Below are positions 4,498 through 33,309 of a stretch of DNA of 33,309 nucleotides, piece after piece. The stretch spans positions 1 through 33,309 of IMG/VR virus record IMGVR_UViG_3300021976_000049; one strand, 5' to 3'. Source of the DNA: a virus. How positions within the stretch are numbered: the stretch's first letter is position 1; the number at the start of each line of letters is the position of its first letter. The notes below the pieces were generated by a model. That model saw nothing but the letters and a program-made list of their open reading frames with translations, was not told the origin of the DNA and did no database searches. The position numbers and the translations under genes are program-made.

Positions 4498-4511
4498 TCA
4501 CACTGTGATCA
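4495..4511. repeat. Perfect palindrome spanning protease stop and HNH start
   Basis: Arms TGATCACA and TGTGATCA flank a single C. The palindrome covers the TGA stop of the protease (4495-4497) and the GTG start of the downstream HNH gene (4505-4507). In RNA it would form a 7-bp stem with a 3-nt loop hiding the start codon. In DNA it could be a protein-binding site. Confidence 0.75.
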
Positions 4512-4993
4512 GCACAGTGAAGCCAGATCCCCGATTCTGGGCGAAGGTGGACTTCACTGGTCCCTGCTGGGTCTGGACCGGTTACACCAACGCTGATGGT
4601 TACGGGAAGCTCTGTCGTGGGACGACCACGTACGCCGCTCACCGGGTTGCCTACTTCGGCTTGGTCGGCGAGATCCCGAATGGGTTGGAGCTTGACCATC
4701 TATGCCGGAACCGGGCGTGCGTCAATCCGGATCACCTCGAAGCGGTCACACATCACGTGAACGTCATGAGGGGCGCTGGACTCGCCGCTAAGTACGCCCG
4801 CAGGACTTCCTGCTCAGAGGGTCACGAGCTGACTCCTGAAAACACCTACACGCCCCCGAGGGGTGACGGCAGACAGTGCCGCACCTGTCGTGCGGCAAAG
4901 CGCCCTCACAAAAGGACGGCGCTTCCAAGAACTCGGTCGGTTCGGAGTTCACCTCTGACCGCCAACCAAGAAGAGGTGAATTCAATTGGCTGA
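4505..4993 (+). CDS. HNH homing-type endonuclease, copy 1 (162 aa)
   Basis: This is a free-standing HNH nuclease inserted between the protease and decoration genes. Order of elements: an N-terminal RFWAKV...CWVWTG...GYG segment, a central HNH core ([16 protein letters not shown] near residues 60-80), and a C-terminal zinc-finger-like [13 protein letters not shown]...CRTC with a basic tail. The same layout occurs in the genes at 17057 and 23304, so the three are one family. The start is GTG 4505 (GTG 4517 is also possible). No strong ribosome binding site is visible apart from a G-run about 14 nt upstream, so translation may depend on coupling to the protease stop. The 3' end overlaps the decoration gene by 8 nt. 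Confidence 0.88.
4945..4983 (+). promoter_or_regulatory. Hairpin sequestering the decoration-gene ribosome binding site
   Basis: GAGTTCACCTCT (4945-4956) can pair with AGAGGTGAATTC (4972-4983), 12 bp with one G-U, around a 15-nt loop. The 3' arm contains the ribosome binding site AGAGGTGA for the TTG start at 4986. The stem lies inside the last codons of the HNH gene, so ribosomes finishing the HNH would open it. Confidence 0.7.
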
Positions 4994-16968: not shown

Positions 16969-17001
16969 GTGTCGGTGGCGGCAACTAGCGTGGAACATAA
17001 A

Positions 17002-17051
17002 GCTCCGGCGACTGCGCAAACAGCCCCGGAGCGTGACCGACTTACTAGGAG
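17002..17051 (+). promoter_or_regulatory. Structured leader upstream of HNH copy 2
   Basis: GCTCCGG (17002-17008) pairs with CCGGAGC (17026-17032) around a 17-nt loop. It is followed by TGACCGACTTACTAGGAG, which includes the ribosome binding site TAGGAG at 17046-17051. The leader of HNH copy 3 has the same order: hairpin, TGAC-GAC, then CCTAGGA. Confidence 0.6.
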
Positions 17052-17056
17052 TCGAT

Positions 17057-17527
17057 ATGGCAGACCTTACGCTCACTATGTTCGGCGACCCGCGCCTACC
17101 CACGCAGTTCTGGGAGAGGGTGTTCATCGAGGCCAACGGGTGCTGGAAATGGTCGGGTTCGATCACGACTTCCGGCTACGGCATGGTCCCGTGGCATACC
17201 TCGTATCCCGCCAGTAAGCGTGCTCACCGTGCGGCCTATCTGGCGCTGGTGGCCCCCATCCCTGAAGGACTCGTGCTCGACCATCTCTGCCGGAACCGAG
17301 ACTGCGTGAATCCGGATCATCTTGAAGTGGTCACGATCCGCGAGAACACGCTGCGCGGCGATGGCCCTGCAGCCATTAACGCAAGGGCTGTCGTGTGCTC
17401 GACAGGCGGCCACCCGCTATCCGGAGAGAACCTCTACGTCAATCCTCGTGGAGCTCGCTGTTGTCGAACTTGCATCAACGCGAGGAGGCGCGCCCGGCGC
17501 GCAGAGGCGAGGTCCGCCACTACCTGA
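17057..17527 (+). CDS. HNH homing-type endonuclease, copy 2 (156 aa)
   Basis: The layout is the same as the copies at 4505 and 23304: QFWERV...CWKWSG...SGYG at the N-terminus, HNH core [20 protein letters not shown] near residues 73-92, and a C-terminal zinc-finger-like CSTGGHPLSGENLY...CRTC with an Arg-rich tail. It is inserted between the Dit-like and Tal-like tail genes. The ATG at 17057 has TAGGAG at 17046-17051, behind an 88-nt leader with a hairpin. The next gene begins 13 nt later and its ribosome binding site overlaps the HNH stop. Confidence 0.9.
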   Translation: MADLTLTMFGDPRLPTQFWERVFIEANGCWKWSGSITTSGYGMVPWHTSYPASKRAHRAAYLALVAPIPEGLVLDHLCRNRDCVNPDHLEVVTIRENTLRGDGPAAINARAVVCSTGGHPLSGENLYVNPRGARCCRTCINARRRARRAEARSATT

Positions 17528-19291: not shown

Positions 19292-19444
19292 ATGGCCAAG
19301 GGAACACCGATCCGGAACATCCGGGTTGACGACGAACTGTGGGAGGCTGCCGCCGAGGTGGCCAACGCGCGGCAGGAGTCCCTGTCCGAGGTCCTCCGCC
19401 AGTTCCTCCGCGACTACATCGCGGCACACAAGGCTGCACTGTGA
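19292..19444 (+). CDS. Ribbon-helix-helix DNA-binding protein (50 aa)
   Basis: This short protein has the RHH (CopG/Arc) layout: a strand (PIRNIRVDDELW), helix 1 (EAAAEVANARQ), a turn with S-L-S-E, and helix 2 (EVLRQFLRDYIAAH). Such dimers insert a beta ribbon in the major groove of short palindromes. Two ATG codons (19289, 19292) are possible; GGGGAG at 19278-19283 is better spaced for 19292. It lies just after a promoter with two GTGTA/TACAC palindromes, so it probably controls its own transcription and that of the deacetylase gene, whose GTG overlaps its stop. Confidence 0.8.
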   Translation: MAKGTPIRNIRVDDELWEAAAEVANARQESLSEVLRQFLRDYIAAHKAAL

Positions 19445-20367
19445 TTACCCGGCGCACTCTCCTGAAGATCGGTGCCGCCGCCACGCTCGTGCCCACCCTC
19501 ACCACAGCGCAGGCGAAGGGTAAGCCCATGCCGCGAGTCTTCTTCCACAGTCCTCACCCCGACGATGAGACCCTGTCCATGGGGCTCGCGGTCACCCACT
19601 TCATTGCCTCCGGCTACGAGGTTCACCTCGTCTCCATGACCAACGGCGACGCGCTCGGTGTGGCGAACACCCTCAACGGAACCTCCACGTGCACCCTGTC
19701 GGATCACCCGTACGCCCACAACCCTGCACGCGAGGGCTACCCGTCGCTCTCCACCGACGACATCGGTGCGGCCCGCCTGAAGGAAGCCCGCGCTGCTCTC
19801 GGCGCGATGGCGATGTTCCCCACCACCACACCGGGGACCGTCGTCCACCACTACGCGGGGCTGCATGACGGGTTCGGCGGACCGCCCCACGGCGCGGCCA
19901 CCTCTACCGCTATCGCTGAGGCGAAGGCCGTCATCAAGGGGTTCATCGACGAGTACCCGAACGCCCTGCACTACACGATGTCGAAGTCCGACGCCCACCC
20001 TGATCACGCCGCCTGCGGTGCGGCACTGCGGGAGTTGAAGAACGACGCCATCTACGGACCGCCTCTGGTCAACGCGAAGTTCTTCGTGTCCCGCCTGTAC
20101 TGGGGACTCTCCCAGCCCAACGGCCTCTACCCGCAGGTCGTGCTCGACGAGGCCGACGGAACACTCGCCTGGTACGGCTCAGCATCGACAGCGTTCCAGG
20201 CCCGGAAGGCTGAGTACGACGCGTGGCTGCGGACCAAGGTCGTCGTCCCGTACAAGGCATGGAACCCGGCCGCCGGCGCGTACGGGATCGGCTACCACCA
20301 GGTGGCCTCGCAGTTCAACAACAACTTCGGGCCGTCGGCGAGTGTTGCGAATCTTTGGCACGCCTGA
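19441..20367 (+). CDS. PIG-L/LmbE-type deacetylase with Tat-like signal (308 aa)
   Basis: The metal-binding motif HPDDE (residues 39-43) and the second motif HPDH (186-189) mark the PIG-L family of zinc-dependent N-acetyl-sugar deacetylases (MshB, LmbE relatives). The N-terminus TRRTLLKIGAAATLVPTL with a following AQAKG resembles a twin-arginine signal, which implies export across the host membrane. The substrate is unknown; cell wall amino sugars are a reasonable guess. The GTG at 19441 overlaps the RHH stop and gives the intact signal sequence. The operon ends in a hairpin terminator 13 nt later. This looks like an accessory (moron-type) insertion between tail and lysis genes. Confidence 0.88.
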   Translation: MITRRTLLKIGAAATLVPTLTTAQAKGKPMPRVFFHSPHPDDETLSMGLAVTHFIASGYEVHLVSMTNGDALGVANTLNGTSTCTLSDHPYAHNPAREGYPSLSTDDIGAARLKEARAALGAMAMFPTTTPGTVVHHYAGLHDGFGGPPHGAATSTAIAEAKAVIKGFIDEYPNALHYTMSKSDAHPDHAACGAALRELKNDAIYGPPLVNAKFFVSRLYWGLSQPNGLYPQVVLDEADGTLAWYGSASTAFQARKAEYDAWLRTKVVVPYKAWNPAAGAYGIGYHQVASQFNNNFGPSASVANLWHA

Positions 20368-23303: not shown

Positions 23304-23846
23304 ATGGGCGAGCGTACCTGCTGTCTACTCAACTGCGGCAAGCCAGTCCACGCCCGCGGCGTCTGCTCTCACTACATGAGGTGCTGGCGCGGGGAAGCCG
23401 AATGGCCGGTCGTTGCTCCGACCGTAGGTCCGTCGTACTCCGACCGGTTCTGGTCCAAGGTTGCCCGCCGTGAGCCGCAGGATTGCTGGCTCTGGCTGGC
23501 CAGCAAGTACCCCAATGGGTATGGCCAGTTCGATCATCAAGGCGCTCACCGAGTCTCGTACCAGCTCGCCATTGGGCCCATCTCCGATGAGCTCGTGATC
23601 GACCACCGCTGCTGCCGCAGGGACTGCGTCAACCCTGCGCACCTCCAACCCGTAACCCCAGCCGTCAATGTCCAGCGCGGGTACGCGCCACCCATCGCCG
23701 CAACCCGGATGCGCGAATGGTCAGCCGCCCGCACTCACTGTTCGCGCGGGCATGAACTGACCCCTCAGAACACCTATGTCACACCCAAGGAAGGCTGGCG
23801 GCAATGCCGTATTTGCCGAGCTGGCCGTAAGAAGAATCGGAGGTAG
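23304..23846 (+). CDS. HNH homing-type endonuclease, copy 3 (180 aa)
   Basis: An extra N-terminal zinc-finger-like segment (TCCLLNCGKPVHARGVC) precedes the same layout as the other two copies: RFWSKV...CWLWLA...NGYG, the core VIDHRCCRRDCVNPAHLQPVT and the C-terminal CSRGHELTPQNTY...CRIC with a Lys/Arg tail. It is inserted between the GH12-like gene and the holin. The ATG at 23304 is preceded by AGGAAGAGG. Its last codons contain the ribosome binding site of the holin, 4 nt downstream. Confidence 0.9.
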   Translation: MGERTCCLLNCGKPVHARGVCSHYMRCWRGEAEWPVVAPTVGPSYSDRFWSKVARREPQDCWLWLASKYPNGYGQFDHQGAHRVSYQLAIGPISDELVIDHRCCRRDCVNPAHLQPVTPAVNVQRGYAPPIAATRMREWSAARTHCSRGHELTPQNTYVTPKEGWRQCRICRAGRKKNRR

Positions 23847-24145: not shown

Positions 24146-24388
24146 CTAGCAGGGCTTGATAGTGCCCAGCACCGCGCCGTACACGGTGGGGACGGGTGTC
24201 GCCGTCAGCGTGGAACCGTCTGCGGGAGGTTCCCAGATTCCAGGTGCCTGCTGACCCAGTGGGCGGACAATCTCTGCCTGCGTTACGTGGACGGCATCCT
24301 CGGGGCTGTGGGCATAGACGACAGCGGACTCGAAGTCGTCGTAGCTCGCCGCGCTCGCCGTCACCAGATACAGGGTCAGGTCGCTCAT
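24146..24388 (-). CDS. Conserved small phage protein (80 aa), last gene of leftward operon
   Basis: The product starts MSDLTLYLVTASAASYDDFESAVVYAHSPEDA (region residues 1-32), a pattern I associate with a widespread but uncharacterised actinophage protein. There is no catalytic motif. The ATG at 24388 has GGAGGTG just upstream on the minus strand and overlaps the previous stop (ATGA). The second half is Pro/Thr/Val-rich. It is the terminal gene before the convergent terminator. Confidence 0.75.
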   Translation of the reverse strand: MSDLTLYLVTASAASYDDFESAVVYAHSPEDAVHVTQAEIVRPLGQQAPGIWEPPADGSTLTATPVPTVYGAVLGTIKPC

Positions 24389-24531
24389 CTCTTCACCTCC
24401 GGGCATGTCTTGTGGACTCTCGCACCATCCGGTGCCGTCACAGCATCACCGAGAGGCTGAAGGCATCGCGGACAGCGGGCGGTGGAATCTACCGGGTGTC
24501 TACCACGCCGGGAACGGGTGGTGTAGCTCAC
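24385..24531 (-). CDS. Zinc-ribbon-like micro-protein (48 aa)
   Basis: From a GTG at 24531 that overlaps the upstream stop (GTGA), the product has a basic N-terminus and a CPRCLQPLG...VHKTC motif near residues 20-43, which could bind one zinc ion. The stop overlaps the next ATG. The tight overlaps on both sides support translation. Function unknown. Confidence 0.6.
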   Translation of the reverse strand: MSYTTRSRRGRHPVDSTARCPRCLQPLGDAVTAPDGARVHKTCPEVKR

Positions 24532-24731
24532 GACTGCATCCCGTGAGGTCGCGGCCCGACCAAGATGATCGGGGCCACCTTGCCCTGCGGATCGCGACCC
24601 TCGGTGTGCGCCAAATGCGCAGCCGAAGCCGCCGCCCTGCTCGGATAGACGCCGAGGCTTTCTCCACATCCACAGTCAGCGAAGTAATGCCCGTCGTTCG
24701 TTGCTTCCAGTGAGCGCCTGTGCCCCTTCAT
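24528..24731 (-). CDS. Small Cys/His protein (67 aa)
   Basis: The central motif DGHYFADCGCGESLGVY, followed by a helix with AAHLAH, suggests a small C-x-C...H..H metal site. The start ATG overlaps the previous stop (ATGA) and its own stop overlaps the next GTG. I know no function. Confidence 0.65.
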   Translation of the reverse strand: MKGHRRSLEATNDGHYFADCGCGESLGVYPSRAAASAAHLAHTEGRDPQGKVAPIILVGPRPHGMQS

Positions 24732-24898
24732 TGCTGGCCCTTCAGTACGTCGAGCTTGCTGTCCACTTCCCGCAGAGCCTTCACCCCGTCAGCCCCCAAC
24801 TCCCGGATCAGATCAGACCCGAGACGTACCTCCAGCAGTAGCTTGAGTGCGTCGATCTGGCGAGGCGTCAACGGGAGACGCTTCTGGGTGACGCTCAT
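24728..24898 (-). CDS. Small helical protein (56 aa)
   Basis: Reads MSVTQKRLPLTPRQIDALKLL and then a Leu-rich helix (RELGADGVKALREVDSKLDVL). It could be a small adaptor or DNA-associated helix protein; no domain is recognised. ATGA overlaps join it to the genes on both sides. One CACTTCCC sequence, the immunity operator half-site, falls inside it at 24764-24771, perhaps by chance. Confidence 0.65.
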   Translation of the reverse strand: MSVTQKRLPLTPRQIDALKLLLEVRLGSDLIRELGADGVKALREVDSKLDVLKGQQ

Positions 24899-25116
24899 CG
24901 TTGCCCCGTCCTCAACCTGTCAGCATCCCCACGCAACTCCGCGATCACCGACGGCGGCTCACCCTCATCGATCGCGTTCAACCGGTCCATGAACGCCTCC
25001 GCCTGCTCCAGAGACGGGTACGGCACCGGGTACCGGTACGGTTTCGCGTGCTCCACATCGACCACGAACCAGCGCTCACCATCACGCTCAACCAGGAACT
25101 TGGCTGGCCGGCTCAT
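24895..25116 (-). CDS. Small protein of unknown function (73 aa)
   Basis: The product begins SRPAKFLVERDGERWFVVDVEHAKPYRYPV, a beta hairpin-like start, and ends with a helix (LEQAEAFMDRLNAIDEG). This is common in phage-encoded single-domain accessory proteins. No motif suggests an activity. The ATG at 25116 overlaps the stop of the preceding gene. No strong ribosome binding site is visible, so coupling is likely. Confidence 0.7.
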   Translation of the reverse strand: MSRPAKFLVERDGERWFVVDVEHAKPYRYPVPYPSLEQAEAFMDRLNAIDEGEPPSVIAELRGDADRLRTGQR

Positions 25117-25277
25117 GCGGAGGTCGCCTGCTTACAATCTCGGCCCGGGCAGTAGTAATTGTGCTCCGTGCACCCCGGGCCGAAGCCGTGATCGACTTCG
25201 TGTTCCATCTCGACCTTGGGCCATTCCCGGCCGCACAGGTCGCAGTTCCGCTTGTCCACGGTCTTGCTATCGTTCAT
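25113..25277 (-). CDS. Zinc-finger-like micro-protein (54 aa)
   Basis: Cysteines are arranged as CDLCGREW near residues 12-19 and GCTEHNYYCPGRDC near 35-48. This suggests a two-knuckle zinc site separated by a His/Glu-rich loop (EMEHEVDHG). The ATG at 25277 has GGAGG about 10 nt upstream. A 111-nt gap with a hairpin separates it from the preceding gene of the operon. Function unknown. Confidence 0.65.
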   Translation of the reverse strand: MNDSKTVDKRNCDLCGREWPKVEMEHEVDHGFGPGCTEHNYYCPGRDCKQATSA

Positions 25278-25307
25278 CACAGCCTGAACCTCCAGTGTTC
25301 GGCTACT

Positions 25308-25338
25308 CGCCTCACTCCGTCACAAGCGGGGTGAGGCG
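25308..25338. repeat. Hairpin in the only sizeable gap of the leftward operon
   Basis: CGCCTCAC (25308-25315) pairs with GTGAGGCG (25331-25338). The inner TCCG/CGGG extends it to about 12 bp with one G-T. It is followed by TTCTTT on the plus strand, so it would look like a terminator for rightward transcripts. On the leftward message it may be an attenuator or processing site. Confidence 0.5.
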
Positions 25339-25388
25339 TTCTTTCGTTGTCCCCACGTTACCCCTCACTCAGGGTATGGGCGGAGACC

Positions 25389-25586
25389 TCAGAAGTCGTG
25401 GGTGCACAGCGGGCAGAACTCAAGGTCCGGCGTCACCCCGGTGTTCATCCAACTTTGAGCCGCCACGAACTCCTCTTCGGTGAGGAAGTAGTGACCGCAC
25501 TCGAAGCAGAACCGGAAGTACTCGTCGGGGACCGGCTCCTCACCGTGGAAGTAGCAGCCGGGATCCGCCACTGCGCCCCCTCCCAT
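25389..25586 (-). CDS. Zinc-ribbon protein (65 aa)
   Basis: Two CxxC knuckles, RFCFECGHYF near residue 26 and EFCPLCTHDF at the C-terminus, frame a helix (TEEEFVAAQSWM). This is a typical small zinc ribbon that may bind nucleic acid or protein. ATG 25586 is given, but the in-frame GTG at 25571 has GGAGGGGG just before it and may be the true start. With ATG, it overlaps the previous gene by 47 nt. Function unknown. Confidence 0.68.
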   Translation of the reverse strand: MGGGAVADPGCYFHGEEPVPDEYFRFCFECGHYFLTEEEFVAAQSWMNTGVTPDLEFCPLCTHDF

Positions 25587-25716
25587 GCTTCGCGCATCCA
25601 GTGCACGGGTTCCGCTTCGGGCAGGTCGGGAAGGCTGCGGCGACGTGCGGCATGTAGCGAAACTGGAGCCGTACTGGGTAGACGCGGTCGCGGTAGACGT
25701 ACGCGACCGGGGTCAC
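25540..25716 (-). CDS. Small Cys-containing protein (58 aa)
   Basis: The GTG at 25716 overlaps the preceding stop (GTGA). The product is basic, with a beta-like start (VAYVYRDRVYPVRLQFRY) and a CPKRNPCTGCAKHG cluster near residues 32-45 that could hold a metal. The C-terminal end overlaps the next gene in another frame. It is short and overlapped, so it is less certain than its neighbours. Confidence 0.5.
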   Translation of the reverse strand: MTPVAYVYRDRVYPVRLQFRYMPHVAAAFPTCPKRNPCTGCAKHGRGRSGGSRLLLPR

Positions 25717-25910
25717 GACTGCTCCACCCGGACACCGCAGGCGGTGCAGGCGAAGTACTCGCCCTCACAGTTCGTACATACCGGAGCGGCAACGGCTTCC
25801 CGCAGCATCACGACGACCTCACCTGCCACGTCATACAGGTCAGGTTGGAAGCCCCGACCTAGATCCATGAGCCGCTGGAAGACAGCGTCCTGCTCCGCCT
25901 CGCCGCTCAC
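25713..25910 (-). CDS. Zinc-ribbon protein (65 aa)
   Basis: An acidic helical N-terminal part (EAEQDAVFQRLMDLG...VVVMLREAV) is followed by two CxxC knuckles, VCTNCEGEYFACTACGVRV, forming a compact zinc ribbon at the C-terminus. The GTG at 25910 lies in a GTGA overlap. A helix plus ribbon could be a small protein-protein adaptor or anti-host factor; this is speculation. Confidence 0.68.
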   Translation of the reverse strand: MSGEAEQDAVFQRLMDLGRGFQPDLYDVAGEVVVMLREAVAAPVCTNCEGEYFACTACGVRVEQS

Positions 25911-26119
25911 TCCCCTCCCTCCCCACTAGATGAGAGAGCGGCAGACCGGACCCGCTCGGCGATTTCCGCATCCGTCAACTGCTCGCCCCGTTGGGCGCTC
26001 TCCAGGCTCTCAACCCTCACCCGCTCGAACGGCAGCCGCCTGCCTGCCTCGTCGCACAACCTGCGGTACTCCAGCACCCAACGATGCCGGTAGGCCGCCG
26101 CTGCTAGTACGTCGCTCAC
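25907..26119 (-). CDS. Small helical protein (70 aa)
   Basis: Starts at a GTG overlapping the upstream stop and reads SDVLAAAAYRHRWVLEYRRL, then a charged helix (ESLESAQRGEQLTDAEIAERV) and a Ser/Gly/Glu tail. It is predicted to be almost entirely helical. No known domain. Confidence 0.65.
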   Translation of the reverse strand: MSDVLAAAAYRHRWVLEYRRLCDEAGRRLPFERVRVESLESAQRGEQLTDAEIAERVRSAALSSSGEGGE

Positions 26120-26418
26120 TGGGTCACCTCGGTAGAGAGAAGAGCGAGGACAGCCCCGGCGATAGTCGCCCGCGTAGCGGGGTTGCTGACGTAGCTCAGG
26201 TCGATGGCCTGTTCGATCTGAGCCTGCGTGACCTCCACTTGAGACAGCTCCACGAAGCCACCTACACCTGCCGTCTTCATGGCGCGGTCGTACAGCCACG
26301 CGATGACCACGAGTTGCGTCTCCTCCGTGAGGCCCTCAAGTGGCACGCCGGACTGGTTCAGCTCGTCAGCGGCCCGCTCTAGCGCCTTTGCTTCAATGAC
26401 AGCCCTTGTGGTGCTCAT
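26116..26418 (-). CDS. Small helical protein (100 aa)
   Basis: The product is helical and mildly acidic, e.g. STTRAVIEAKALERAADELNQ and a later LVVIAWLYDRAMKTA. It ends with a hydrophobic helix (ATIAGAVLALLSTEVTQ). The ATG at 26418 has a strong GGAGGGGA ribosome binding site, so it is a separate translation entry point within the operon. Function unknown. Confidence 0.72.
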   Translation of the reverse strand: MSTTRAVIEAKALERAADELNQSGVPLEGLTEETQLVVIAWLYDRAMKTAGVGGFVELSQVEVTQAQIEQAIDLSYVSNPATRATIAGAVLALLSTEVTQ

Positions 26419-26894
26419 GACTTCCCCTCCGTAGCCTTCGGGTAGAGAGCAGCGAGGACAGCTTTGGCCTGCCGAATGCGGTACCGCTCGGGCCACTCAT
26501 CGATCTGGTTCTGAGGCTCGCACGACGCCAGCGCCGCTGTGATCTGACCCAGCGACGGCGCTTCCCGGTCGATCGCCCCAGGCTCGGCAGTGAGCTTGTT
26601 GAGGACCCGCTCCCGGGCGAACACGGCTTCCGGGTCCACGTCTCCCGCGCCCCTGCCCGGACCGATGTAGCCGTCCAGCCCGGCCGCGTTGCCGTCATCC
26701 CAAGCCTCACCCAGCGCTTCCCGGTCTACCACTGTGGGCTTCGACGCCTCCAGTACCGCGATGATCTCGGCGAGCGCCCGGTCACCGATCTCGTAGTGGC
26801 CCTGGTTGTTGCGGCCCAAGTGTTCGACCGCCTTCAGTTCGACGATCAAGTTCCGCCGGCCAACCTCGACCTCATCCGGCGTCAGGTCGGTCAT
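26415..26894 (-). CDS. Unknown helical protein (159 aa)
   Basis: The second largest product of the leftward operon. It begins TDLTPDEVEVGRRNLIVELKAVEHL and contains AIIAVLEASKP, a Gly/Asp-rich middle, and a C-terminal YRIRQAKAVLAALYP helix similar to segments in other products of this operon. No enzymatic signature is visible. The ATG at 26894 is in an ATGA overlap with the preceding gene and lacks a strong ribosome binding site. Confidence 0.7.
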   Translation of the reverse strand: MTDLTPDEVEVGRRNLIVELKAVEHLGRNNQGHYEIGDRALAEIIAVLEASKPTVVDREALGEAWDDGNAAGLDGYIGPGRGAGDVDPEAVFARERVLNKLTAEPGAIDREAPSLGQITAALASCEPQNQIDEWPERYRIRQAKAVLAALYPKATEGKS

Positions 26895-27169
26895 GACTTG
26901 CACCACGGGTTCGGACACAAGGCGATAGCGGAAGCGCGGCAGGGCGGGCACATCCGGATCCCCTTGCGCTCCTCACAGGTGTGGAAGTGGAACCGAGACA
27001 GGATGATGAACGCCGCCACCGACCTTCCTTCCTGCGTGGTCGTGTCTCCACACACTCGGCACTGAAGTACGCACGGTTCCCAGCCGACCACCCCATCGAC
27101 CTTGCCGGGGATCGTCGGCCGTTGGAATGGGAGCTCGAGCTCCGCCATCCCGACGCCTACCTCACTCAT
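26891..27169 (-). CDS. Zinc-finger-like protein (92 aa)
   Basis: Several Cys knuckles follow one another: CVLQCRVCGD near residues 33-42, FHTCEERKG near 61-69, MCPPC near 73-77 and CPNPWC near the end. This could support two zinc sites with an interposed strand (RSVAAFIILSRFHFH). The ATG at 27169 has GAGGAG upstream. Function unknown. Confidence 0.7.
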   Translation of the reverse strand: MSEVGVGMAELELPFQRPTIPGKVDGVVGWEPCVLQCRVCGDTTTQEGRSVAAFIILSRFHFHTCEERKGIRMCPPCRASAIALCPNPWCKS

Positions 27170-27444
27170 CGGTTCTCCTCGGCTGCTTCACGGATAGCCC
27201 GGACAGCATCCTCCTGCATGGACTCCCGGCCGTGGAGGTAGTCCTCGAACCCGATGCCCCATCCGATCGCGGTGACGGCTCGCTGTGCGTTCACGTACGC
27301 CTCGTGAACGGCAGCCTTGGCGCCGGTCTCATAACCTTCCTCGTAGGCTGCGCGCTGGTGACTGAACCCAGCGTTGTCATCGGTCGGATGGTCCGCGACG
27401 CCGCCGACCCATGCCTGGTGCGCCCTCGCGTTCAGGGTGGTCAT
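27166..27444 (-). CDS. Unknown small protein (92 aa)
   Basis: The sequence TTLNARAHQAWVGGVADHP, then YEEGYETGAKAAVHEAYVNAQ and a C-terminal acidic helix (MQEDAVRAIREAAEENR), suggests a helical protein with a Gly/Tyr-rich turn, as in other actinophage accessory proteins. A GTG (27447) and an ATG (27444) overlap the preceding stop; ATG is preferred. Confidence 0.68.
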   Translation of the reverse strand: MTTLNARAHQAWVGGVADHPTDDNAGFSHQRAAYEEGYETGAKAAVHEAYVNAQRAVTAIGWGIGFEDYLHGRESMQEDAVRAIREAAEENR

Positions 27445-28058
27445 CACAAGCCAGCCTTGGTCACACCGTAGACGGCCTGCGCGTGAGTGAACCCCTCACC
27501 AGCATCGGACTCGAGCTGCTGGATCAGGCCGCTGCGGGAGAAGTGCGTCATCTCCAGGTACTTCTGGGCGGACTTCGCGGCCTGCTCGTTCCAGTCGACC
27601 GTGACGTGGTCGACGGCGTACGTCGCATCCGCCACCGAGAACCCTTCACCCGCATCCGACGACAGCTGGCGGATCAGGCCCTTGCGGCTGAACGCGGTGA
27701 AGTCCAGGTACTGCTCGGCTGACCCGATCGCCTGCTCCTGACTGTTGGTCAGCGAAGGCTCCGGGGCCTCTGTGGTGGCTTCGACGGTGGGCTCAGTGGT
27801 CGCCGGCGCCTTGGTGGGGGCCACGGTGACCTTGGGCTTCGCGGTGGCCTGGCTCGTGACGCTCACCGGTGCCTTCGCGTCCTCCGTACCGGTCGCTGCA
27901 CCGATGACGCCCACCGCTACCGGGATGCCGACGACGATGCCGACGATCACGAGCAGGGCCGTGCGAACGGGGTGGGACTTCTTCGGGGCGGGCTTGAAGT
28001 TCTGCGGGCCCTCGAACGGCGGGTGGTTGGACGGCTGGTTCGGGTACTGCTGGTTCAT
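27444..28058 (-). CDS. Ltp-like membrane protein, probable superinfection exclusion (204 aa)
   Basis: The C-terminal ~95 residues hold two repeats of the Ltp lipoprotein domain (PF07553 type): SAEQYLDFTAFSRKGLIRQL with AGEGFSVADATYAV, then SAQKYLEMTHFSRSGLIQQL with AGEGFTHAQAVYGV. In the phage TP-J34 prototype this domain blocks DNA entry of other phages. Here the N-terminus has no lipobox. Instead a Pro/Asn/Gln-rich cytoplasmic part precedes one membrane helix (VRTALLVIVGIVVGIPVAVG, residues ~31-50) and a Thr/Pro/Ala stalk. It is the first gene of the leftward operon, with its own promoter. ATG 28058 has AAGGGGC upstream. Confidence 0.85.
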   Translation of the reverse strand: MNQQYPNQPSNHPPFEGPQNFKPAPKKSHPVRTALLVIVGIVVGIPVAVGVIGAATGTEDAKAPVSVTSQATAKPKVTVAPTKAPATTEPTVEATTEAPEPSLTNSQEQAIGSAEQYLDFTAFSRKGLIRQLSSDAGEGFSVADATYAVDHVTVDWNEQAAKSAQKYLEMTHFSRSGLIQQLESDAGEGFTHAQAVYGVTKAGL

Positions 28059-28089
28059 GGTGCCCCTTGCGTAGGATTGTGTAGGTGTC

Positions 28090-28118
28090 ATCCTGCGGAA
28101 CCAGCCGCGCATTGTCAA
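28090..28118 (-). promoter_or_regulatory. Promoter of the leftward accessory operon
   Basis: On the minus strand, TTGACA (28118-28113) and CAGGAT (28095-28090) are 17 nt apart, a good sigma-A-like match for actinobacteria. Transcription would start near 28083, about 25 nt before the Ltp-like ATG. Confidence 0.65.
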
Positions 28119-28129
28119 GCCCGCACGTA

Positions 28130-28135
28130 TATAGT
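28130..28135 (+). promoter_or_regulatory. Likely -10 element for leaderless integrase mRNA
   Basis: TATAGT ends 6 nt before the integrase ATG (28142), so the transcript would start at or next to the start codon. No clear -35 and no ribosome binding site are seen. Confidence 0.5.
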
Positions 28136-28141
28136 GCTGCC

Positions 28142-29578
28142 ATGGATACTCCGAAGAGTGCGGGCGTCTACTGCCGTCTCAGCTACAGCCCCGACGGTTC
28201 GCTCGAGAAGGTCGAGCGTCAAGAGGCTGACTGCCGCGCGCTCGGTGGTCGGCTCGGCTGGGGAATCCGTGAGGTCTACTCGGACAACTCCCGGTCCGCG
28301 TGGAAGCGGGACAGGAAGCGTCCGCAGTGGGACCGGATGCTCGCCGACATCAAGGCGGGATTGCTTGACGGCATCTTGGTGTACCACGGCGACCGGCTCA
28401 TCCGGCAGCCCTGGGACCTGGAGCTCCTGCTCAGCCTGGCCGACGACAAGGCGCTGCCGCTCGCGTCACCGTCCGGCACCCGAGACCTCAACAGGGAGGA
28501 TGACCGGTTCATCCTCCGCATCGAAGCTGCGGCCGCATGCCGCTCCTCGGCTGACACATCCCGTCGAGTGAAGCGTGACAATGACGCGCGCGCTATCGCG
28601 GGCCGCCCCTCCGGTGGAGGCAATCGCCCGTTCGGCTACGGCCTCCCCACTGGCAAGAACGGGGTCACCGGCAAGCCGTTGCACGACCTAACCCAGCAGG
28701 TCCCCGAAGAGGCCGCGGTGGGACGCGAGGCCGTGGAGCGACTGCTCGCTGGACAGTCGCAAGGTGGAGTGATCGCCTGGCTGAACACCGTCTCGACCAC
28801 CACTAACGGGAACCGGTGGAAGCCCCCCGCCTTCCGTGCGTGGCTGAAGACCCCCCGCCTCGCCGGACTCATCGAGCACAAGGGCTCCCTGATGCCTGGC
28901 GCGTGGGAGCCGATCGTCACGCGCGAGCAATGGGAGGACGTGCAGGCGCTCCTGAAGGCCAGCAGTGAGCTCCACGGCGAGCAGGGCAGGGTTCGGGTCC
29001 ATCTCCTCAGTGGGATCGCCGAGTGCTCCTCCTGCGGCGGCAAACTGCGAACGAAGCCCGTCACCGGCAAGTCCCCGAATGCCCGGCAGTACTTCTGCGC
29101 AGCCCCCGAATGTCCTCACCGGGTCTCCCGCAACATCATTCACCTCGACGCCTACGTCACCGGCCGCGTACTGCGCCGGCTGAACGACCCCGCCTTCATC
29201 GCCGCGCTCCACGCGAACGATGACCAGCCCGGAGTTGGTGCGGAGATCATCAGTCTGGAGCGCCGAAAGGCCGAGGCGAAGAAGGTGCTGGAGGAGCTCG
29301 CCGACCACCCGGACATCGACCCAGCACTTCAGGCCAAGTCACTGATGGGGTTCGACCGGAAGATCGCCCAACTCCGCGACCATCTGACCACCACCACCCG
29401 GCAGCGACTACTTGCCCGCCTGGCCGGGGTGACGCTAGAGCAGTGGGATGCCGAGCCGGTCGACGTCCGGGCGGAGACGGCGCGCTCCCTGTTCAGGGTG
29501 GTCGTGCTTCCGGCTACTCGCCGTGGCCCCGGGTTCGACCCGGCAAGCGTCCGTGTTGAGCGTGTGGAAGTTACATGA
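28142..29578 (+). CDS. Serine integrase, large serine recombinase (478 aa)
   Basis: This enzyme recombines attP with the host attB. The N-terminal catalytic domain has the R-x-S motif (CRLSYS, nucleophile near Ser14), followed by QEADCRALGGRLGW and the conserved RDRKRPQWDRML and VYHGDRLIRQPWDL segments. The recombinase domain (around 160-290) contains GRPSGGGNRPFGYG. A zinc ribbon follows (ECSSCGGKL...FCAAPECPH near 298-330), then a coiled coil (SLERRKAEAKKVLEEL) and a C-terminal tail. Length is typical. The ATG at 28142 has no ribosome binding site and is probably leaderless. Serine integrases usually lie beside attP. Confidence 0.93.
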   Translation: MDTPKSAGVYCRLSYSPDGSLEKVERQEADCRALGGRLGWGIREVYSDNSRSAWKRDRKRPQWDRMLADIKAGLLDGILVYHGDRLIRQPWDLELLLSLADDKALPLASPSGTRDLNREDDRFILRIEAAAACRSSADTSRRVKRDNDARAIAGRPSGGGNRPFGYGLPTGKNGVTGKPLHDLTQQVPEEAAVGREAVERLLAGQSQGGVIAWLNTVSTTTNGNRWKPPAFRAWLKTPRLAGLIEHKGSLMPGAWEPIVTREQWEDVQALLKASSELHGEQGRVRVHLLSGIAECSSCGGKLRTKPVTGKSPNARQYFCAAPECPHRVSRNIIHLDAYVTGRVLRRLNDPAFIAALHANDDQPGVGAEIISLERRKAEAKKVLEELADHPDIDPALQAKSLMGFDRKIAQLRDHLTTTTRQRLLARLAGVTLEQWDAEPVDVRAETARSLFRVVVLPATRRGPGFDPASVRVERVEVT

Positions 29579-29775: not shown

Positions 29776-29865
29776 ATGCAGGAGTTACTGAGGATCCGAT
29801 CGGAGATAGCGGCAGCTCTGGAGCAGGTAGACGAGGTGATCGCGGGGGTCAGTCCTCGCGGTTAA
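29776..29865 (+). CDS. Possible 29-residue peptide
   Basis: An ATG with GGGAGAG 5-6 nt upstream opens a short helical peptide (QELLRIRSEIAAALEQVDEV) ending in TAA. Its last 17 nt overlap the 3' end of the convergent repressor gene. An N-terminal extension from a GTG at 29753 or 29742 is possible. Good ribosome binding site, but very short. Confidence 0.4.
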   Translation: MQELLRIRSEIAAALEQVDEVIAGVSPRG

Positions 29866-30205
29866 TCAGCCTCTCCAAGTCGTCCGCAGCCTGGCGGAAT
29901 CGTTGCAGGGCATCCCGGAGTTGATCAACGTCCAACTCCGGGCCTGCAGCGCCGGTCGGCCCTTCGGGCACCCAGTAGCCGAGGCCTCTGCGCGCCTCCA
30001 GCTCTGAGACTCCGAGCACTTCAGCGAGTCGAGGGATCCGCTCCTCGCTGACTGTCGTCTTTCCGTTGCGCCAGTAGTAGACCGTTTTCTCGGTGACGCC
30101 TAGGGCCTCAGCGATGCGCTGAATGCTGACGTCGCGGCGCTCCATCTGACGCGTGAGCCAGGCTCCTGCAGATGGGCTCGGTGGGGTCTGGACCGAGTTA
30201 CTCAT
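29849..30205 (-). CDS. XRE-family HTH repressor, likely immunity repressor (118 aa)
   Basis: A helix-turn-helix lies at residues ~25-75 (RRDVSIQRIAEALGVTEKTVYYWRNGKTTV, described as a region), with the typical RIPRLAEVLGV after it. The C-terminal part is Gly/Pro then helical (LRDALQRFRQAADDLERLI), suitable for dimerisation. It is divergent from another XRE gene, and both promoters carry CACTTCCC half-sites, so this is the best candidate for the lysogeny repressor. The ATG at 30205 is preferred to 30226 because the latter would lie inside the operator palindrome. Confidence 0.82.
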   Translation of the reverse strand: MSNSVQTPPSPSAGAWLTRQMERRDVSIQRIAEALGVTEKTVYYWRNGKTTVSEERIPRLAEVLGVSELEARRGLGYWVPEGPTGAAGPELDVDQLRDALQRFRQAADDLERLINRED

Positions 30206-30211
30206 GCTGCA

Positions 30212-30300
30212 ACTTTCACTTCCCACCTGGGAAGTGTCAAGTTACATGCAAAGAACCTCACACTTCCCCCTTGACACCTCCCACTTCCCACGGACATAGT
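30212..30300. promoter_or_regulatory. Divergent immunity promoters with shared operators
   Basis: Leftward: TTGACA (30240-30235) and GAAAGT (30217-30212), with a perfect palindrome CACTTCCCA-CC-TGGGAAGTG (30217-30236) filling the spacer. Rightward: TTGACA (30271-30276) and CATAGT (30295-30300), with CACTTCCC at 30261-30268 just upstream and at 30282-30289 in the spacer. Four half-sites for one repressor are therefore placed to shut both promoters. Confidence 0.8.
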
Positions 30301-32555: not shown

Positions 32556-33309
32556 AGAAGATCACGAAGCTCACCCCCGAACAGGAAGCGATCCTGCCGG
32601 TAGTCCGCGACGAATGGCTCCAGCACGGCCTATCCACCGAGCCCGCCGACCGACCCGCCGCCGAAGAAGGCGTCCGCATGGCCTACCGCGCCGCCGGCCT
32701 CGAGCCGCCCCGGTTCATGATCTGGCTCGGCTCGCCCATGGCCGGCGTCTACGGTCAAGCAATCGCTGGCCCGATCGTCACCTCCGCGATGCGGCACGAC
32801 CAGGTGGACGGCCAGGTGTACGGCCAGGTGTACGACCAGGTGCACGGCCAGGTGCACGGCCAGGTGTACGACCAGGTGTACGACCAGGTGTACGACCAGG
32901 TGGACGACCAGGTGCACGGCCAGGTGCACGGCCAGGTGTACGACCAGGTGCACGGCCAGGTGGACGGCCAGGTGGACGGCCAGGTGCACGACCAGGTGTA
33001 CGACCAGGTGGACGACCAGGTGGACGGCCAGGTGCACGACCAGGTGTACGACCAGGTGGACGGCCAGGTGGACGGCCAGGTGTACGACCAGGTGCACGGC
33101 CAGGTGCGCGACCAGGTGCGCGGCCAGGTGCGCGACCAGGTGCGCGGCCAGGTGCGCGACCAGGTGCACGGCCAGGTGCGCGACCAGGTGCACGGCCAGG
33201 TGCACGGCCAGGTGTACGACCAGGTGCACGGCCAGGTGTACGACCAGGTGCACGGCCAGGTGCACGGCCAGGTGCACGGCCAGGTGCACGGCCAGGAGCG
33301 CGGCCAGGT
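32552..33309 (+). CDS. Repeat protein, incomplete at window end (>252 aa)
   Basis: The ATG at 32552 overlaps the previous stop. Residues 1-80 are a unique helical domain (KKITKLTPEQEAILPVVRDE, LSTEPADRPAAEEG, MIWLGSPMAG). From residue ~82 the protein consists only of a four-residue repeat, [H/Y/D/R]-[G/D]-Q-V, with no stop before the window ends. Proteins with a similar opening and long QV-type repeats occur in actinobacteria and their phages and may belong to the DUF6745-like group; I am not sure. The periodicity could form a long beta solenoid or fibre. Function unknown. Confidence 0.75.
   Translation, partial: MKKITKLTPEQEAILPVVRDEWLQHGLSTEPADRPAAEEGVRMAYRAAGLEPPRFMIWLGSPMAGVYGQAIAGPIVTSAMRHDQVDGQVYGQVYDQVHGQVHGQVYDQVYDQVYDQVDDQVHGQVHGQVYDQVHGQVDGQVDGQVHDQVYDQVDDQVDGQVHDQVYDQVDGQVDGQVYDQVHGQVRDQVRGQVRDQVRGQVRDQVHGQVRDQVHGQVHGQVYDQVHGQVYDQVHGQVHGQVHGQVHGQERGQ
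32795..33309 (+). repeat. About 43 tandem copies of a 12-bp coding repeat
   Basis: The unit is NAC or CGC, then GRC, then CAGGTG. The CAGGTG half is invariant until a single GTG-to-GAG change near 33297. Only the first two codons vary (His/Tyr/Asp/Arg and Gly/Asp). The array continues past the window edge. An apparent long minus-strand ORF here is only the shadow of the repeat. Confidence 0.9.

What the first reader, a model, noticed from the sequence alone, without database searches (positions are those of the whole stretch)
24146..28058. Fifteen-gene leftward operon of tiny overlapping genes, rich in zinc-ribbon micro-proteins
Between the lysis cassette and the integrase, 15 short ORFs (48-204 codons) run leftward from one promoter, nearly all joined by 4-nt ATGA/GTGA overlaps. 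Seven products (at 24385, 24528, 25113, 25389, 25540, 25713, 26891) carry Cys/His pairs that look like zinc ribbons, and the first gene is an Ltp-like exclusion protein. The overlaps show the genes are real, but none apart from the Ltp-like gene has a known role. This could be a lysogenic-conversion or anti-phage/host-takeover cassette.
Basis: partly seen in the sequence, partly recalled or inferred. Interest (0 to 1): 0.75.

Follow-up and report, generated by a model that had tools for sequence, protein, structure and literature searches.

The report
Phage exclusion-gene cassette beside attachment site
A temperate virus of an actinobacterium carries, next to the site where it joins its host's chromosome, a swap-in block of 15 tiny genes headed by a protein with the fold of a known blocker of other viruses, and the block's likely on-switch lies so that joining the chromosome would cut it off.

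Summary
The 15-gene leftward operon is real. Twelve of 14 junctions are 4-nt ATGA/GTGA overlaps; its longest overlap chain (8) exceeds all 1000 shuffles (max 5). Gene 1 has two Ltp repeats and its predicted fold matches the TP-J34 superinfection-exclusion protein (PDB 4eqq, TM 0.88), with a TM helix instead of a lipobox. The other 14 proteins match no family at curated cut-offs; they are three times richer in Cys than virion/lysis proteins, and five are credible metal-binders.

Five related phages carry an Ltp-headed array of small, mostly overlapping genes in the same slot between attachment site and lysis genes, with different cargo (secreted proteins, SGNH-like hydrolases, DUF6221). A sixth has the slot without Ltp.

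Two features were not in the finding. (1) The likely promoter, TTGACA-N17-CAnnnT, lies within attP (serine-integrase kin) or just before it (tyrosine-integrase kin), so integration should uncouple it from the cassette; six of seven such sites in 200 strand-kb are these. (2) A hairpin plus RBS-hairpin plus ATGAACGATAGCAAG element precedes gene 10 and recurs in seven phages; Rfam lacks it. New variant of a known kind.

The parts
27444..28058 (-). g1: Ltp-type superinfection-exclusion protein, 204 aa, TM-anchored, two Ltp repeats
   Evidence: PF07553 E 9e-37; PHROG 4980/15667; fold match to 4eqq
27166..27447 (-). g2, 93 aa, no family
   Evidence: GTGA overlap with g1; codon score best in frame
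26891..27169 (-). g3, 92 aa, 8 Cys with two CxxC, probable metal-binder
   Evidence: ATGA overlap; Cys count; weak codon score
26415..26894 (-). g4, 159 aa, carries an AWDDG...GPGR motif shared with small genes of other actinophages
   Evidence: tblastn matches up to 70% over 44 aa, sited among DNA-metabolism genes there
26116..26418 (-). g5, 100 aa, no family
   Evidence: ATGA overlap; codon score
25907..26119 (-). g6, 70 aa, no family
   Evidence: GTGA overlap; weak codon score
25713..25910 (-). g7, 65 aa, CxxC-x6-CxxC
   Evidence: GTGA overlap; CxxC spacing beyond shuffles, P 0.008
25540..25716 (-). g8, 58 aa, doubtful; its end overlaps g9 by 47 nt
   Evidence: GTGA start overlap but weak codon score
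25389..25586 (-). g9, 65 aa, CxxC-x28-CxxC, zinc-ribbon-like
   Evidence: Pfam DZR E 0.03, below cut-off; CxxC P 0.025
25263..25350 (-). Conserved element before and into g10: A-rich stretch, hairpin 1 (25308-25338), RBS hairpin 2 (about 25280-25305), start with AACGATAGCAAG
   Evidence: Seven phages; 35/35 outer pairs Watson-Crick versus 54% in swapped arms; no Rfam match
25113..25280 (-). g10, 55 aa, MNDSKT start, Cys/His-rich
   Evidence: Start sequence conserved in kin before otherwise different ORFs
24895..25116 (-). g11, 73 aa, no family
   Evidence: ATGA overlap
24728..24898 (-). g12, 56 aa, no family
   Evidence: ATGA overlap; codon score
24528..24731 (-). g13, 67 aa, CxC and HxxxH-like
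   Evidence: ATGA overlap; weak codon score
24385..24531 (-). g14, 48 aa, CxxC and HxxC
   Evidence: GTGA overlap; PHROG 3693 E 0.0024; codon score not in favour
24146..24388 (-). g15, 80 aa, no family; start moved from 24406 to 24388
   Evidence: ATGA overlap; codon score
24101..24135 (.). Strong GC hairpin between the convergent holin gene and g15, probable end of both units
   Evidence: Perfect long stem in the RNA fold; no T-run, so not scored as an intrinsic terminator
28079..28132 (.). Probable attP: imperfect inverted repeat between integrase and g1
   Evidence: Conserved in seven phages; integrated relatives show the half-sites
28090..28118 (-). Probable operon promoter TTGACA-N17-CAGGAT, inside attP, -35 on the integrase side and -10 on the Ltp side
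   Evidence: Fixed spacing in kin; 6 of 7 such sites in 200 strand-kb lie at Ltp operons
28145..29578 (+). Serine integrase, divergent from the cassette
   Evidence: 66-70% identical to integrases of L002, L003, L004, L018; aligned

Best explanation
This is an accessory (moron) cassette of a temperate actinobacterial siphophage, placed between attP and the lysis genes and read as one leftward unit towards the lysis genes. Shown: the gene array, the Ltp identity, the conserved slot and the cargo exchange in kin. Inferred: transcription starts at a repressor-independent host-type promoter that lies in attP. The first product is a membrane-anchored Ltp that blocks DNA entry of other phages at the cell surface, as TP-J34 Ltp does. 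The 14 small, partly metal-binding products act on the host or on competing phages and are exchanged between phages. After integration the cassette lies at the prophage end opposite the integrase, with the -35 box left behind on the integrase side, so its expression is predicted to drop or to pass to flanking host DNA.
For: Overlap chain beyond all shuffles. Ltp by Pfam, PHROG and fold. Same slot with Ltp-headed overlapping arrays but different cargo in five kin, and a sixth without Ltp. Cargo in kin includes secreted and SGNH-like proteins. attP, host cpaF/tadA target and inward-reading secreted gene at the far prophage end in P. limicola. Promoter motif specific to Ltp operons. Repressor-operator-like repeats only at 30217-30290. 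Ltp biology: PMC3952083; prophage-mediated defence mapped to a variable central region in cluster N phages: PMC7542560.
Against: No expression data. g2-g15 have no assigned function. The g4 motif occurs in small genes among DNA-metabolism genes of other phages. TTGACA may be conserved as part of the integrase half-site. The attB of this phage is unknown. g8 and g14 may not be genes.
Confidence: 0.68

Rival explanations
1. Plain lysogenic-conversion cassette: expressed from the integrated prophage, through a hybrid or host promoter at attR, to protect or modify the lysogen.
For: Prophage-end position; secreted and surface cargo in kin; [quoted passage not shown] in L033 an Xre-type gene ends at the Ltp start; tyrosine-integrase kin would place the cassette behind a host tRNA gene.
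Against: Integration separates TTGACA from the -10 box, and in P. limicola the host half offers no obvious -35.
Confidence: 0.4
2. Routine early lytic or host-takeover genes that happen to lie in this slot.
For: g4 motif relatives lie among DNA-metabolism genes of Arthrobacter and Gordonia phages; attP is intact on the free genome.
Against: Direction opposite to the late genes and slot next to attP; Ltp at the head; cargo replaced wholesale in kin with 85-87% terminase, not expected of essential replication genes.
Confidence: 0.17
3. A dedicated multi-gene anti-phage defence system.
For: Ltp at the head and tight translational coupling.
Against: No PADLOC model matches convincingly among ten proteins scanned; the gene set is not kept together in any relative found.
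Confidence: 0.1
4. Some of the ORFs (g8 and g14 above all, perhaps g6 and g13) are not genes.
For: Weak or failing codon scores and the 47-nt g8/g9 overlap.
Against: Exact 4-nt overlaps on both sides of g6, g13 and g14 and a chain length beyond all shuffles.
Confidence: 0.2

Closest known systems
Ltp superinfection-exclusion lipoprotein of Streptococcus phage TP-J34 (Pfam PF07553)
   Same: Two helical repeats with the same fold; extracytoplasmic domain behind a Pro/Thr-rich linker; encoded near the integration functions
   Different: TM helix instead of a lipobox Cys; heads a long operon of micro-genes; targets unknown
Variable central region of cluster N mycobacteriophages (Butters; PMC7542560)
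   Same: Accessory genes between lysis and immunity/integration functions, varying among relatives; membrane proteins among the products
   Different: No gene in common was shown here; expression and defence not tested for this phage
Integration-dependent immunity of phage BPs (PMC4557955)
   Same: attP placed so that integration changes expression of nearby phage genes
   Different: There attP lies in the repressor ORF and truncates it; here it lies in a promoter region of an accessory operon
Start-associated sequences (SAS/ESAS) of cluster K mycobacteriophages (PMC3203893)
   Same: Inverted repeat followed by a conserved sequence at a translation start
   Different: One copy per locus examined, different sequence, conservation extends into the first codons, hairpin sequence varies while pairing is kept

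Membership tests
Ltp superinfection-exclusion proteins | Ltp (PF07553) repeats above cut-off | tested here: met
   125 bits against a cut-off of 23
Ltp superinfection-exclusion proteins | Fold of TP-J34 Ltp | tested here: met
   4eqq best hit, TM 0.88-0.90 on target
Ltp superinfection-exclusion proteins | Lipoprotein signal with lipobox Cys | tested here: not met
   g1 has no Cys; hydrophobic segment instead. It is an Ltp-domain protein, not a lipoprotein
Ltp superinfection-exclusion proteins | Blocks DNA entry of other phages | not testable with these tools
   Needs an infection assay
Prophage-mediated defence region (cluster N type) | Located between lysis and integration/immunity genes, variable among relatives | tested here: met
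Prophage-mediated defence region (cluster N type) | Expressed in lysogens and protective | not testable with these tools
   Needs RNA-seq and challenge assays
Zinc-ribbon proteins | Match to a zinc-ribbon profile above cut-off | tested here: not met
   Best g9 DZR 14.9 bits versus 27.3; g14 14.1 versus 27
SAS/ESAS of cluster K phages | GGGATAGGAGCCC at start codons | tested here: not met
   No site with 2 or fewer mismatches in the window; fewer 3-mismatch sites than chance
Integration-dependent immunity (BPs type) | attP inside the repressor gene | tested here: not met
   Probable attP at 28079-28132, repressor at 29849-30226
Known anti-phage defence systems (PADLOC) | Convincing match to a system protein model | tested here: not met
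   No match for g2-g7 and g9-g11; g1 only weak (E 0.0016-0.013); g8 and g12-g15 not scanned

The most novel reading that the evidence does not exclude
An attachment-site switch for an exclusion cassette: a host-type promoter is laid across or just before attP so that the Ltp cassette is on whenever the phage genome is free (at infection or after excision) and is cut off, or handed to a host promoter, by integration. Serine- and tyrosine-integrase relatives would share this layout by different means, and a conserved hairpin/start element would separately control the distal part of the operon.
Probability: 0.33. Interest if true: 0.72.

Novelty: new variant of a known kind. Interest (0 to 1): 0.52.

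Why it matters
Many phage genes of unknown role are small accessory genes like these. The slot, its Ltp head gene and its exchange pattern give a rule for finding exclusion and host-modifying genes in actinobacterial phages. If the attP promoter works as its position suggests, superinfection exclusion would be tied to whether the phage genome is free or integrated, which a two-reporter experiment can test. The hairpin/start element, conserved in pairing but not in sequence and absent from Rfam, is a nucleic-acid feature worth a direct test.

Tried and rejected
Homologues of g3, g4, g10 and g15 in viral contigs: none. Megablast of the region against isolate phages: none. Ltp hits in ten Actinomycetes genomes looked at closely: isolated Ltp genes without this operon or phage. 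Pattern GAYGAACGATAGCAAG: of 16 viral hits, 5 are true elements (4 already known plus L157), the rest look like chance; the single hit in 394 genomes is chance. Element as a cluster K SAS: rejected. Rfam: nothing. MAFFT alignments of all seven elements misalign the stems, so pairing was counted on a structure-anchored basis; the five-sequence RNAalifold run is likewise limited by the alignment, with a positive (unfavourable) covariation term. The g9 AlphaFold model without an alignment is low confidence and was not used. A PADLOC resemblance of Ltp (E 0.0016) covers mostly the Pro/Thr-rich linker and was discounted. Hairpin 1 as a rightward (antisense) terminator stays open: its C.A site becomes U.G and the flank becomes a T-rich tail on the + strand, but why that site is conserved is not explained.
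Full report
WHAT THE WINDOW IS. The window is an IMG/VR virus record of 33,309 bases. It encodes a terminase, tape measure, amidase and holin reading rightward, then the leftward array in question, then a rightward serine integrase, a leftward Xre-type repressor and a rightward Cro-like gene. The terminase is at most 38% identical to isolate phages among the best hits listed but 77-87% identical to four IMG/VR records.

CHECKING THE OBSERVATION. All fifteen ORFs are present. With g15 started at 24388, twelve of fourteen junctions are exact ATGA/GTGA overlaps; the exceptions are a 47-nt overlap (g8/g9) and a 108-nt gap (g9/g10). The longest overlap chain is 8, against 2 on the other strand and at most 5 in 1000 dinucleotide-preserving shuffles. 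Codon preference learned from the virion genes favours the operon frame for 14 of 15 ORFs; g14 fails, and g3, g6, g8 and g13 are weak. Cys content is 2.6% against 0.85% in virion and lysis proteins. Zinc-ribbon profiles match only below cut-off.

THE HEAD GENE. g1 carries two Ltp repeats. AlphaFold with five relatives gives confident helices over residues 105-201, and the best PDB match is Ltp of phage TP-J34 (4eqq, E 1.4e-5, TM 0.88 on the target). It has no Cys; a hydrophobic segment after a short N-terminus replaces the lipid anchor. [quoted passage not shown] the tape measure protein is its reported target (cited in PMC11480721). Isolate phages with related Ltp genes include many Gordonia phages.

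THE REST OF THE OPERON. g2-g15 have no family match at curated cut-offs (Pfam; NCBIfam for ten proteins including g1), no PADLOC match among the nine of them scanned, and no relative found in viral contigs for g3, g4, g10 and g15. The exceptions are a motif in g4 shared with small genes among DNA-metabolism genes of Arthrobacter and Gordonia phages, a weak g4 N-terminal match in kin L030, and g14 with PHROG 3693 of unknown function at E 0.0024.

THE SLOT. Five kin (L029-L033) carry an Ltp gene that overlaps the next gene by 4 nt and heads a run of small, mostly overlapping genes towards the lysis cassette. A sixth record, G414, has the same slot with a secreted-looking first gene instead. Their cargo differs: SGNH-type hydrolases (L032, L033; below Pfam cut-off), secreted-looking proteins (L029, L031), and DUF6221 (L029, L033). 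This is cargo exchange at a fixed place. The position resembles the variable region of cluster N mycobacteriophages, to which prophage-mediated defence has been mapped (PMC7542560).

ATTACHMENT SITE AND PROMOTER. The 86-bp gap between integrase and g1 holds a 54-bp imperfect inverted repeat whose features are conserved in seven phages. In integrated relatives (for example Acrocarpospora, Herbidospora, Spongiactinospora) the integrase-side half is joined to a host gene that reads as a CpaF/TadA-type ATPase (assigned by its Walker and GEVRG motifs, not by a profile search). In Phytoactinopolyspora limicola the rest of that gene (LLAALNTGHEGGCGTLHAN) lies 63 kb away, next to an inward-reading secreted-looking gene, and the two junctions share CTCC at the centre of the repeat. 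So the repeat is very probably attP, and the Ltp cassette would lie at the prophage end opposite the integrase. Within it lies TTGACA-N17-CAGGAT reading into g1, with the hexamers on opposite sides of the crossover. The kin with the closest terminases, L031 and L033, use tyrosine integrases and an attP core that looks like the 3' half of a tRNA gene; there TTGACA-N17-CAGACT lies between integrase and core, reading across the core towards Ltp. Only seven TTGACA-N16-18-CANNNT sites occur in 200 strand-kb of these loci; six are these (one per phage), and the seventh is the Cro-side site at 30271. Repressor-operator-like repeats are confined to 30217-30290. Inference: the cassette promoter is repressor-independent and is uncoupled from the cassette by integration. 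The caveats are that TTGACA may be kept as part of the integrase half-site, and that the window phage's own attB is unknown. BPs-type integration-dependent immunity (PMC4557955) shows that phages do use attP position to change expression, but by truncating the repressor.

THE INTERNAL ELEMENT. The gap before g10 contains an A-rich stretch, a GC-rich hairpin, a second hairpin enclosing the ribosome-binding site, and ATGAACGATAGCAAG at the start of g10. The same arrangement occurs in six further phages (L029, L030, L031, L032, L157, and a weaker one in L033), in front of otherwise different ORFs; in L030 the ORF is only 11 codons. The hairpin's outer five pairs are Watson-Crick in 35 of 35 cells while their bases differ, against 54% when arms are swapped between phages, and six of seven keep a C.A site, which is U.G on the opposite strand. 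On the opposite strand the hairpin is followed by a T-rich tail, so a rightward terminator is one reading; a leftward translation-control element is the other. Rfam has no match and isolate phages show none. It is not the cluster K SAS (PMC3203893).

VERDICT. The operon is real. It is best read as an attP-adjacent accessory cassette headed by a superinfection-exclusion protein. Exclusion by Ltp is well supported by homology; the roles of the micro-proteins are open; the timing of expression is the key unknown and is directly testable.

Noticed in passing
32794-33309: Forty-three copies of a 12-bp tandem repeat (GCACGGCCAGGT) run off the right end of the contig; either a real repeat array or the cause of the assembly break.
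   Followed up: no
19411-20367: PIG-L/LmbE-type deacetylase with a possible TAT signal in the tail/lysis region (Pfam E 6e-16); relatives lie in the same region in three kin (47-65% identity).
   Followed up: partly
about 4500-4990, 16970-17527 and 23305-23846: Three ORFs whose sequences read as HNH homing-type endonucleases lie between structural and lysis genes; assigned by eye, not by profile.
   Followed up: no
L035-L038, L047, L052; G017:C1 about 35.8-98.9 kb: This serine-integrase family appears to integrate into a host gene that reads as a CpaF/TadA ATPase, splitting it at GEVRGxEV|..LLAALNTGHEGG.
   Followed up: partly
25540-25586: g8 and g9 overlap by 47 nt out of frame, unlike every other junction; a frameshift, a wrong start or a sequencing error are all possible.
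   Followed up: no
L116 8001-9476: Another actinophage contig with Ltp divergent from a serine integrase, followed by a matrixin-like metalloprotease (PF00413 E 1.8e-6) and small overlapping genes.
   Followed up: partly
30217-30290: Operator-like repeats CACTTCCCA/TGGGAAGTG between the divergent repressor and Cro-like genes.
   Followed up: partly
L033 9966-10367 (-): The start sequence ATGACGAACGATAGCAA also occurs at a gene on the opposite strand beyond the operon end, so it may be a wider start-associated sequence in this phage group.
   Followed up: no
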